Assembly: GCA_025517465.1 (NCBI GenBank)
Contig: JAOPKE010000002.1
Span: 124,001-188,000, forward strand
Direction of reading: 5' to 3'
DNA: 64,000 nt
Origin: Halobacteria archaeon HArc-gm2
Lineage (GTDB): Archaea > Halobacteriota > Halobacteria > Halobacteriales > Haloarculaceae
Below are positions 1,839 to 46,536 of this stretch, piece by piece. Below the pieces are notes generated by a model, which did no database searches, had not been told where the DNA came from, and saw nothing but the letters and a program-made list of their open reading frames with translations. The first letter of the stretch is position 1. Each line of letters opens with the position of its first letter. The translations under genes were made by a program, and so were the position numbers.

Positions 1839-2085
1839 CGACCATCACACGGTTGATTTCTTTCTTTGCGAGACGAACAGCGACAGCCACCGCTCGATAA
1901 CGACTTCGGCAACCACCGTGGGTGGGGCATCGAAAGGGGCCGACCGCTCGTCGAGCGAGAACCACCAAGCACGGCCGCAGGCCGCGCGCAGGTGCGTTCG
2001 GAGCCGACGAGCGGGAGGGGGCTTTCGGGGCTGTTAGTCACTATCCGTCAGTTTATTAGCTGATTCAATCAACTCAAAGCGCTCC

Positions 2086-2724: not shown

Positions 2725-3121
2725 CGCTTTGGACTGGGGCCTGAAAAGTCTGGAGTGACGTGAGGGTAACCGGGATGGTGAGAAATGGGGATGGCTTGCT
2801 ACTGCACTGCAGAGTCAGCTAACGAGAACAACTTGAAAGCCCCCTCCCGCTCGGGTCGGGAGCACCGACGGACTCACTCCGTTCGTCCGTCGAGGTCACA
2901 CTCGCTTTGCTCGCGTGACTCTCGCTTCGCTCCTCGGCCTGGCGGCCTGCGGTGCTTGCGTCGCCTGCCTTCCCCGAGCGGAAGGTCGGCTCCGCCGACC
3001 TTCTATAACCTGGCGGCTTCGCCGCCAGGCGGTCGGCCCCTTTCAGTCCCGCCCGGTGGTCTCTTCGCCTCGCCGGAACACGCCGGATGGTCTCTTCGCC
3101 TTCAAACCTCTGTGGTCGCTC
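2725..3121. other. Gene-free spacer rich in short perfect hairpins
   Basis: No convincing gene lies here. The spacer holds a chain of short GC-rich hairpins: 2844-2862, 2867-2891 (GACGGAC arms), 2898-2919, 2981-3003 (10-bp perfect stem, 3-nt loop) and 3009-3029 (9-bp perfect stem, TTC loop). It ends with two copies of GGTCTCTTCGCCT near 3056-3105. Short reading frames crossing it are by-products of the high G+C. Confidence 0.7.
2835..3050 (+). repeat. Half copy of the long-inverted-repeat element family
   Basis: Starts with GAAAGCCCCC and ends with CCCCTTTCAGTCC, and between them keeps in the same order CGCTCCTCG, TGCGGTGCTTGC and CTTCCCCGA. This is the order of the left arm of the elements at 36657-37479 and 45567-46066. 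No matching right arm (ACTGAAAGGG ... GCCGAGGGCTTTC) is seen here, so it looks like a solo left arm. The relationship comes from reading by eye, without a computed alignment. Confidence 0.5.
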
Positions 3122-45474: not shown

Positions 45475-46152
45475 GCTGGTGGGTTGCGCGGGACCCGGCT
45501 TAAACTCCCGGGAGAAGGTTCGGGAGGTGTTGGTGGTGATTGCGTCGACGTAAGCGCCAGGACGTCGAAAATCCTCGGCGCTCTCTGGAGTCGGCAACAA
45601 TACCGCAAACACTCCGAAAGCCCTCGGCGTGCTCCGGTCCCGCGGACCTCCTGCGCTCCTCGCTCCGCTCCGGTGCTTGAAGGTCCGGGGTTCCCGGAGC
45701 CCACCTCGCCCTTTCAGTCCTCCAGGTACCGCACCGCAGGCCTGCCCTCCCCCTGGTCGCGAGAGCCTCGCTTTCGCTCGGCTACTCGCTCCCGGCCAAC
45801 CGCCGCGCGGTTGCGGAAGGAAGCGTGTCGCGCCGCCAGGCGCGACCGGGGAGGGGTGGGGGACTCAATCGCGAGCGCGTTTCATCGCGCGAGCCATGCT
45901 GACCCTGGTGGACTGAAAGGGCGAGGCTCGGTGAACGAAGCACGGACCCACAAGCACCGCAGTGCAACGAGGAGCGCAGTGTGGTCCGCGTGAGTTCAGC
46001 GCGCCGAGGGCTTTCTTCGTGTTTGCGGTGTCGACAACGATAGCTAGGAGCGCGCCGAGGGCTTTCTGGTTGTCGTCGGTCTTCGTTCCGGCTACAGAAA
46101 TCGTTCGGGACTCTTCTCGAAACGCGCCTCCAGACAACCGACTTGGTCTCTT
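45475..46152. other. Gene-free spacer holding element copy B
   Basis: No gene is supported in 678 bases. The long-inverted-repeat element fills most of it. Bases 46067-46152 are the upstream/downstream edge of the neighbouring gene and show nothing recognisable. Confidence 0.7.
45567..46066. repeat. Long-inverted-repeat element, copy B
   Basis: Collinear inverted blocks, left and right: outer GAAAATCCTCGGCGCTCTC 45567-45585 with GAGCGCGCCGAGGGCTTTC 46048-46066; CCGCAAACAC 45603-45612 with GTGTTTGCGG 46019-46028; GAAAGCCCTCGGCG 45616-45629 with CGCCGAGGGCTTTC 46002-46015; CTGCGCTCCTCG 45651-45662 with CGAGGAGCGCAG 45968-45979; CGGTGCTTG 45671-45679 with CAAGCACCG 45951-45959; CCTCGCCCTTTCAGTCC 45704-45720 with GGACTGAAAGGGCGAGG 45910-45926 (17 bp perfect). 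The core is 400 bp. The interior shares AAGCGTGTCGCGCCGC, GGCGCGACCGGGGAGG and ATCGCGAGCGCGT with copy A. No protein is evident. Confidence 0.8.
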
Positions 46153-46536
46153 TCACACGAATGGAACGCCGACGACGCCCCAGTCGCCCAGCAGCGGGGC
46201 GAGGAAGAACCGGGCGACGAGCACCGCGACCCAGGCGACGAAGGCGATTGCGGCTGCCTCCACCCAGTCGGTGTCGTACTGGACGGCGATGACGGTGAGG
46301 TAGACGGCCAGTCCCAGGAGGGTCCCGAGGATACCGCCGATGTGGAAGGGAATCCAGCCGACGACGAGCGTCGCGAGGAGCCAGCCGAGCGCGCCGAACA
46401 CCGCCGTCCACACGGCGGTCCGGAAGTCGCCCTTGCCGACGACGAGCTGGGCGGCGACGTAGATGGCCAGCCCGCCGACGAGCAGGCCGACGACGAACGT
46501 CACTATCGAGCCGAGTACTGTCGCGATGATCTCCAT
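46153..46536 (-). CDS. Four-helix membrane protein, 127 residues
   Basis: Consists of four hydrophobic stretches (VLGSIVTFVVGLLVGGLAIYV, AVWTAVFGALGWLLATLVVG, IPFHIGGILGTLLGLAVYLTV, VEAAAIAFVAWVAVLVARFFL) with short loops. Each of the loops has few charged residues. It resembles small haloarchaeal membrane proteins of unknown function; a reliable family name is not possible. Divergent in position from nothing nearby; the AEC transporter gene ends 90 bases away on the same strand. Confidence 0.65.
   Translation of the reverse strand: MEIIATVLGSIVTFVVGLLVGGLAIYVAAQLVVGKGDFRTAVWTAVFGALGWLLATLVVGWIPFHIGGILGTLLGLAVYLTVIAVQYDTDWVEAAAIAFVAWVAVLVARFFLAPLLGDWGVVGVPFV

What the first reader, a model, noticed from the sequence alone, without database searches (positions are those of the whole stretch)
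45567..46066. Non-coding element built from long imperfect inverted repeats (copy B)
Six blocks of left-arm sequence reappear in reverse complement in exact mirror order on the right arm, the longest a 17-bp perfect pair (45704-45720 with 45910-45926), and the outer ends are themselves repeated (45567-45585 / 45616-45634 on the left; 46003-46015 / 46048-46066 on the right). Short frames here are Arg/Ser-rich and unlike proteins. It is not an IS element: there is no transposase and no clear target duplication. It could be a MITE-like mobile repeat, a structured RNA or a recombination/replication structure. The core is 400 bp.
Basis: seen in the sequence. Interest (0 to 1): 0.72.

Follow-up and report, generated by a model that had tools for sequence, protein, structure and literature searches.

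The report
Archaeal inverted-pair hairpin repeat family
The stretch is one of roughly a hundred scattered copies, in one salt-loving archaeon, of a non-coding DNA repeat made of two opposite-facing folded units; it has kept its fold across species while swapping sequence between copies, and no helper gene or job for it is known.

Summary
45616-46015 is a real, non-random palindrome and one copy of a large dispersed family. Its unit is a ~108-nt hairpin (GGWGGACTGAAAGGGCGAGG...CCGAGGGCTTTC). Two units face each other head to head around a conserved structured centre (45724-45906). As a single strand the copies fold into a perfect four-way junction; covariation is strong (237 double-changed cells against 73.5 in shuffles, 0/500). 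The own genome holds at least 147 units; all 46 close pairs are (-,+). The units occur across Halobacteriales as singlets and inverted pairs. Each unit prefers to fold on its own strand (G-U:A-C 47:0 right, 53:4 left). Copies are intergenic. Most positions are shared with a sister species, but some are empty, collapsed or reduced to one unit. Outer tails are recognisably orthologous; most cores are not, so cores are exchanged between copies. The unit is also the 3' end of a conserved non-coding region on haloarchaeal plasmids, beside an RPA-like gene. No transposase, clear target duplication, Rfam match or nearby Y1 transposase was found. Best reading: a REPIN-like, helper-dependent or conversion-spread repeat with unusually large units. 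A structured RNA is the main rival.

The parts
45567..45615 (.). left outer copy of the end motif (GAAAATCCTCGGCG...), a tandem repeat of the unit end
   Evidence: number of outer copies varies between elements at spacing 50-55 nt
45616..45625 (.). P1 left strand GAAAGCCCTC; pairs with 46006-46015
   Evidence: 8 of the 10 pairs invariant and 99.3% of cells paired in 30 copies
45616..45723 (-). left hairpin unit (sense on the minus strand)
   Evidence: model R1, 115.1 bits, E 4e-24; folds on the minus strand
45704..45720 (.).
   Evidence: exact mirror of 45910-45926; helix 6 100% paired in 30 copies
45724..45906 (.). conserved structured central domain between the two unit heads
   Evidence: alignment of 30 copies with alternative hairpin alleles; strand preference ambiguous
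45907..46015 (+). right hairpin unit (sense on the plus strand)
   Evidence: model R1, 114.5 bits, E 5.6e-24
45910..45926 (.). P2 right strand GGACTGAAAGGGCGAGG
46006..46015 (.). P1 right strand GAGGGCTTTC; outer edge of the unit
   Evidence: plasmid relatives lose similarity exactly here
46016..46066 (.). right outer copy of the end motif (51-nt spacing)
   Evidence: family D1 (45998-46029 and 46049-46080)
46067..46110 (.). probable remnant of the right outer tail; exact end of this copy not determined
   Evidence: only weak match to the tail model R2, 46057-46097, E 0.018

Best explanation
This is one copy of a dispersed, non-coding, transposase-free repeat family of haloarchaea. The building block is a ~108-nt unit that folds as a strand-specific hairpin. 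Here two units stand in inverted orientation, heads inward, around a structured centre, so either single strand can fold into a four-way junction. Shown: copy number, fixed orientation, covariation, strand-specific folding, intergenic placement, shared positions between sister species, presence/absence, and cores that no longer track position. Inferred: copies arise rarely by mobilisation in trans, with the folded unit (probably single-stranded DNA) as the recognised substrate, and afterwards are overwritten by gene conversion between dispersed copies, which swaps whole self-consistent hairpins. It works like a bacterial REPIN or BIME but is not shown to be one.
For: At least 40 full copies and at least 147 units in the own genome, 143 in sister genome G006. 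All 46 close neighbour pairs are (-,+), about 3.65 close pairs of any kind expected at random. Units as singlets and inverted doublets, some with only a 23-32-nt centre, in other genera. Covariation with 0/500 shuffles reaching any measure. Wobble asymmetry per unit. All contexts examined intergenic, convergent 20, divergent 27, tandem 32. Same flanks with element present in both species but empty, collapsed or single-unit sites as well. Tails rank first of 173 in 18 of 40 comparisons, cores rank first of 44 in only 5 of 20.
Against: No mobilising enzyme was identified. Junctions at empty sites are diverged and show no clean ends or target duplication. Most positions are old, so current movement is not shown. 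Exchange of cores could partly be fast in-place evolution, or independent insertion at hot spots.
Confidence: 0.55

Rival explanations
1. A family of structured non-coding RNAs: each unit is the 3' module of an RNA that ends at GAGGGCTTTC, expressed outward from the element, and related to a longer RNA gene on haloarchaeal plasmids.
For: Covariation; each unit folds far better on its sense strand (alifold about -32/-28 against -13/-10); on 19 plasmid loci conservation is high and stops abruptly at GAGGGCTTTC; 148 plasmid records match.
Against: No expression evidence; no Rfam match; single-stranded DNA hairpins would give the same covariation and wobble signal; the plasmid sequence shares only the unit, not the centre; ~100 copies with no preferred gene arrangement.
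Confidence: 0.3
2. A classical MITE of an IS transposon: outer tails are degenerate terminal inverted repeats (...GTACYGAYC at both ends) and a DDE transposase in trans moves it.
For: Two conserved tail types with a similar end motif on most copies; presence/absence between sister species.
Against: Tail model R2 found only copies or remnants of this element, none with a transposase gene among the stretches read; no target duplication visible; conservation lies in the hairpin units and centre, not mainly in the ends.
Confidence: 0.15
3. A DNA architectural or recombination element: extruded cruciforms or four-way junctions bind a host protein and organise or recombine the chromosome.
For: Perfect four-way junction with nearly invariant P1 and P2; two of the positional ortholog pairs align better with the core inverted (L019/L084, L036/L077), as expected of flipping by recombination between arms.
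Against: Copy number varies from none found to at least 147 between related genomes, so it is dispensable in the family; strand-specific wobble per unit is not expected of a double-stranded cruciform alone.
Confidence: 0.12

Closest known systems
REPINs / BIMEs (inverted pairs of REP sequences, thought to be moved by RAYT Y1 transposases; PMC3116915)
   Same: Extragenic, high copy, hairpin units, singlets and inverted doublets of fixed orientation, collapse to a single palindrome by loss of the middle, no transposase inside.
   Different: Units ~108 nt instead of ~20-60 bp, a ~180-nt structured centre with alternative hairpin alleles, archaeal host, tandem end-motif copies, no RAYT found next to units, and one genus member without any Y1_Tnp match still carries 19 units.
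Haloarchaeal MITEs and small mobile repeats (Haloquadratum MITE, SMR; Halobacterium MITEHsal; PMC3119063, PMC10264941)
   Same: Non-coding, transposase-less dispersed repeats in haloarchaea with end symmetry.
   Different: MITEs with a known parent have transposon-like terminal repeats and often target duplications; here the fold of the whole element is conserved and neither a parent nor a duplication was found.
PATEs (palindrome-associated transposable elements; PMC3119063)
   Same: Haloarchaeal, non-coding, palindromes, no target duplication.
   Different: PATEs have near-terminal palindromes related to IS605 ends and no terminal inverted repeats; here two large units are mirrored and no IS605 gene is associated.
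Conserved non-coding region beside RPA-like (OB-fold) genes on haloarchaeal plasmids
   Same: Ends in one unit homologous to R1 (68-78 bits), same GAGGGCTTTC edge.
   Different: Single unit, unrelated upstream part, usually a single locus, no mirrored partner.

Membership tests
REPIN / REP-RAYT | pairs of hairpin units in inverted orientation at characteristic spacing | tested here: met
   46 of 46 close pairs (-,+), most centres 162-242 nt
REPIN / REP-RAYT | a RAYT (Y1 transposase) with repeat units next to it in the genome | tested here: not met
   one Y1_Tnp in the own genome, no unit in its stretch L203; G004 has no Y1_Tnp match but 19 units
REPIN / REP-RAYT | unit size ~20-60 bp | tested here: not met
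   units 99-118 nt
MITE | no coding capacity, multi-copy | tested here: met
MITE | terminal inverted repeats related to a known or present transposon | tested here: inconclusive
   similar end motif on both tails; no transposon with these ends found, but only top-scoring matches were read
MITE | target-site duplication | tested here: inconclusive
   none visible at five empty sites, but junctions are diverged
PATE / IS605-derived | near-terminal palindromes shared with an IS605-type transposon | not tested
   no IS605 end collection was compared; the own genome's Y1_Tnp stretch L203 holds no unit
Known structured RNA family | match to an Rfam model over its gathering score | tested here: not met
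   best hit E 0.79, below gathering score, implausible family; none on plasmid relatives

The most novel reading that the evidence does not exclude
The units are the 3' modules of an unrecognised family of large haloarchaeal structured RNAs. The plasmid form, linked to an RPA-like single-strand-binding gene, is the ancestral gene, and the chromosomal form is a self-spreading, divergently expressed pair that diversifies by hairpin swapping.
Probability: 0.22. Interest if true: 0.85.

Novelty: new variant of a known kind. Interest (0 to 1): 0.6.

Why it matters
Dispersed hairpin repeats of the REPIN type are known mainly from bacteria with a dedicated transposase. An archaeal family found across the order, with units several times larger, at about a hundred sites in one genome, with strand-specific folding and no obvious helper, would be a new test case for how such sequences spread and are kept. 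The contrast of fixed positions, orthologous tails and scrambled cores makes gene conversion between dispersed copies directly measurable. The plasmid relative beside an RPA-like gene gives a concrete single-copy locus at which to test RNA against single-stranded DNA.

Tried and rejected
Chance or G+C artefact: rejected. Coding origin of the outer 51-nt repeats (a codon-like frame ALSGVG..TANNQK): set aside because spacings of 50, 54 and 55 nt break the frame. Known RNA: no Rfam match. Phage or virus origin: no phage hit, no viral contig hit to the unit pattern. TnpB guide-RNA end: no TnpB recognised beside the chromosomal loci inspected by gene call (families were not searched there); one plasmid neighbour (L190) is not shared by the others. 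Autonomous partner by tail model: only copies, collapsed copies and contig ends. Terminator between convergent genes: no convergent preference. Claiming in-place compensatory evolution from positional orthologs (89 compensatory changes against 5.1 expected): kept only as evidence that structure is maintained, because cores are exchanged and many changes are swaps of whole hairpins.

Full report
Observation. The 17-bp pair 45704-45720/45910-45926 is exact, and longer imperfect arms surround it. The core 45616-46015 folds far below shuffled sequence on either strand (z -12.9 and -11.4). It lies between two genes on the minus strand, uspA-like (45019-about 45474) and a membrane protein gene (46153-46536) (the names rest on reading the translations, not on a family search).

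It is a repeat. A search of the own genome (4.25 Mb, 18 contigs) gave at least 40 copies, most at 71-85% identity. Each copy matches the query in both orientations. Aligning them shows one anatomy: outer copies of a GAAAGCCCTC motif spaced 50-55 nt, then a core of mostly 380-460 nt running from GAAAGCCCTC to GAGGGCTTTC, with a mirror set of outer copies on the other side. Each arm is a unit of ~108 nt with the frame GGWGGACTGAAAGGGCGAGG...CCGAGGGCTTTC and a variable inner hairpin. Between the two unit heads is a conserved structured centre of 166-199 nt in most copies.

Structure. On that structure 96.9% of cells are paired, 40 pairs show changes on both sides and 237 cells are double-changed. 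Shuffles give 88.1%, 25.3 and 73.5, and none of 500 reach any observed value; sliding the partners by 1-3 columns destroys the signal. Cells count sequences, not events. Several hairpins exist as discrete alleles that recur in different combinations, so the number of independent changes is smaller than the cell count.

Strand. Read in its own sense, the unit has 47 G-U against 0 A-C cells in right units, 53 against 4 in left units and 18 against 1 in plasmid units. Consensus folding energy is about -32 and -28 in sense against -13 and -10 in antisense. On pairs predicted from both strands the left units still show 14 against 4 and the right units 10 against 0. The left arm therefore folds as a minus-strand molecule and the right arm as a plus-strand molecule. 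The centre shows no clear preference. The unit, not the palindrome as a whole, is thus the strand-specific folded entity. RNA and single-stranded DNA cannot be told apart here.

Number and arrangement. A covariance model of the unit (R1) finds 149 matches at E<=0.001 in the own genome and 147 at E<=1e-5 (150 candidates scored, so a lower bound), 143 in G006, and 19-47 in other members of the genus. In 37 genomes of the family 32 have matches, from 1 to at least 105 (105 scored); a DNA search of 293 genomes of the order found similarity in 134, in 53 of 87 genera. In the own genome all 46 neighbour pairs closer than 700 bp are (-,+), where about 3.65 close pairs of any orientation would be expected. 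Other genera show the same inverted pair, sometimes with only about 23-32 nt between the units (L072, L182, L185), and singlets. Halomarina halobia carries a full-length version, with outer GAAAGCCCTC copies and recognisable parts of the centre.

Genomic behaviour. All 79 contexts classified in two species are intergenic, without strong preference for gene arrangement (convergent 20, divergent 27, tandem 32). Comparison with sister genome G006 shows that most positions are shared, with flanks mostly 85-97% identical. The window's own copy is one of these (L106). Other sites differ: five lack the element in G006 (partners of L050, L040, L017, L049, L048), one keeps only a collapsed end (L138) and one has a single, different unit (L140). 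Outer tails at shared positions are recognisably orthologous (best of 173 in 18 of 40 tests). Cores mostly are not (best of 44 in 5 of 20, median rank 16). The central hairpin is no more alike between positional orthologs than between random copies (0.57 against 0.54, a script that stopped before its last module). I infer exchange of core sequence between dispersed copies, most simply gene conversion. Two ortholog pairs align better with the core inverted, as recombination between the arms would produce.

Ends and helper. Two tail types flank most copies and fade out at ...GTACYGAYC, about 72-88 nt outside the unit. In the window copy these tails are eroded. A tail model found copies, collapsed copies and contig ends, and no transposase-bearing element in the stretches read. 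No target duplication is visible, but the junctions are diverged. Y1 transposases are present in six of seven genus members; the one in the own genome has no unit in its stretch, and G004 has none yet carries 19 units.

Plasmid relative. The unit also occurs on haloarchaeal plasmids, mostly once or a few times per record: 40 records match the window element directly and 148 match the plasmid version. In most loci inspected it ends a conserved non-coding region beside a gene for an OB-fold, replication-factor-A-like protein; a few lack that gene in the stretch shown (for example). In 19 aligned loci conservation is high for about 330 nt and stops at GAGGGCTTTC. The window centre itself has no plasmid match. 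This makes a functional RNA a serious rival.

Comparison with known kinds. The closest working model is the REPIN (inverted pair of REP hairpins, PMC3116915, read), including the reported collapse to a single palindrome. Membership is not claimed: the unit is too large and no RAYT association was found. MITE membership is undecided on ends and target duplication. PATE membership (PMC3119063, read) was not tested against IS605 ends. No Rfam family matches. Literature searches in the held library found no description of this family; that library omits most subscription papers.

Limits.

Noticed in passing
Both units carry an inserted smaller double-hairpin (GTGGTTCGAGAGAGC...GCCTTTCGAACGAC), also seen inside units of L032 and L042; the centre has tandem duplications.
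   Followed up: partly
window 1924-2026 and 2807-3003: Diverged unit-like match (41.6 bits, E 2.2e-7) and weak unit and tail matches nearby; possibly a decayed element.
   Followed up: no
L168, L169, L171, L172, L173, L156, L046 (contig ends of the own genome): Several contigs end inside these elements; L169 and L172 start with the same 55 bases, so the repeat probably broke the assembly.
   Followed up: no
L010:3464-4113, L061, L062 and other plasmid loci: Conserved non-coding region between an RPA-like OB-fold gene and variable neighbours on plasmids, several typed with MPF_T genes; might be an RNA gene, a replication or transfer origin, or a single-strand promoter.
   Followed up: partly
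L199:3650-4320 (Halomarina halobia): Three outer GAAAGCCCTC motif copies on each side at spacing near 40-46 nt instead of 51.
   Followed up: no
L020, L026, L048: Internal tandem duplications of single hairpins of the centre, showing that hairpins behave as separate modules.
   Followed up: no
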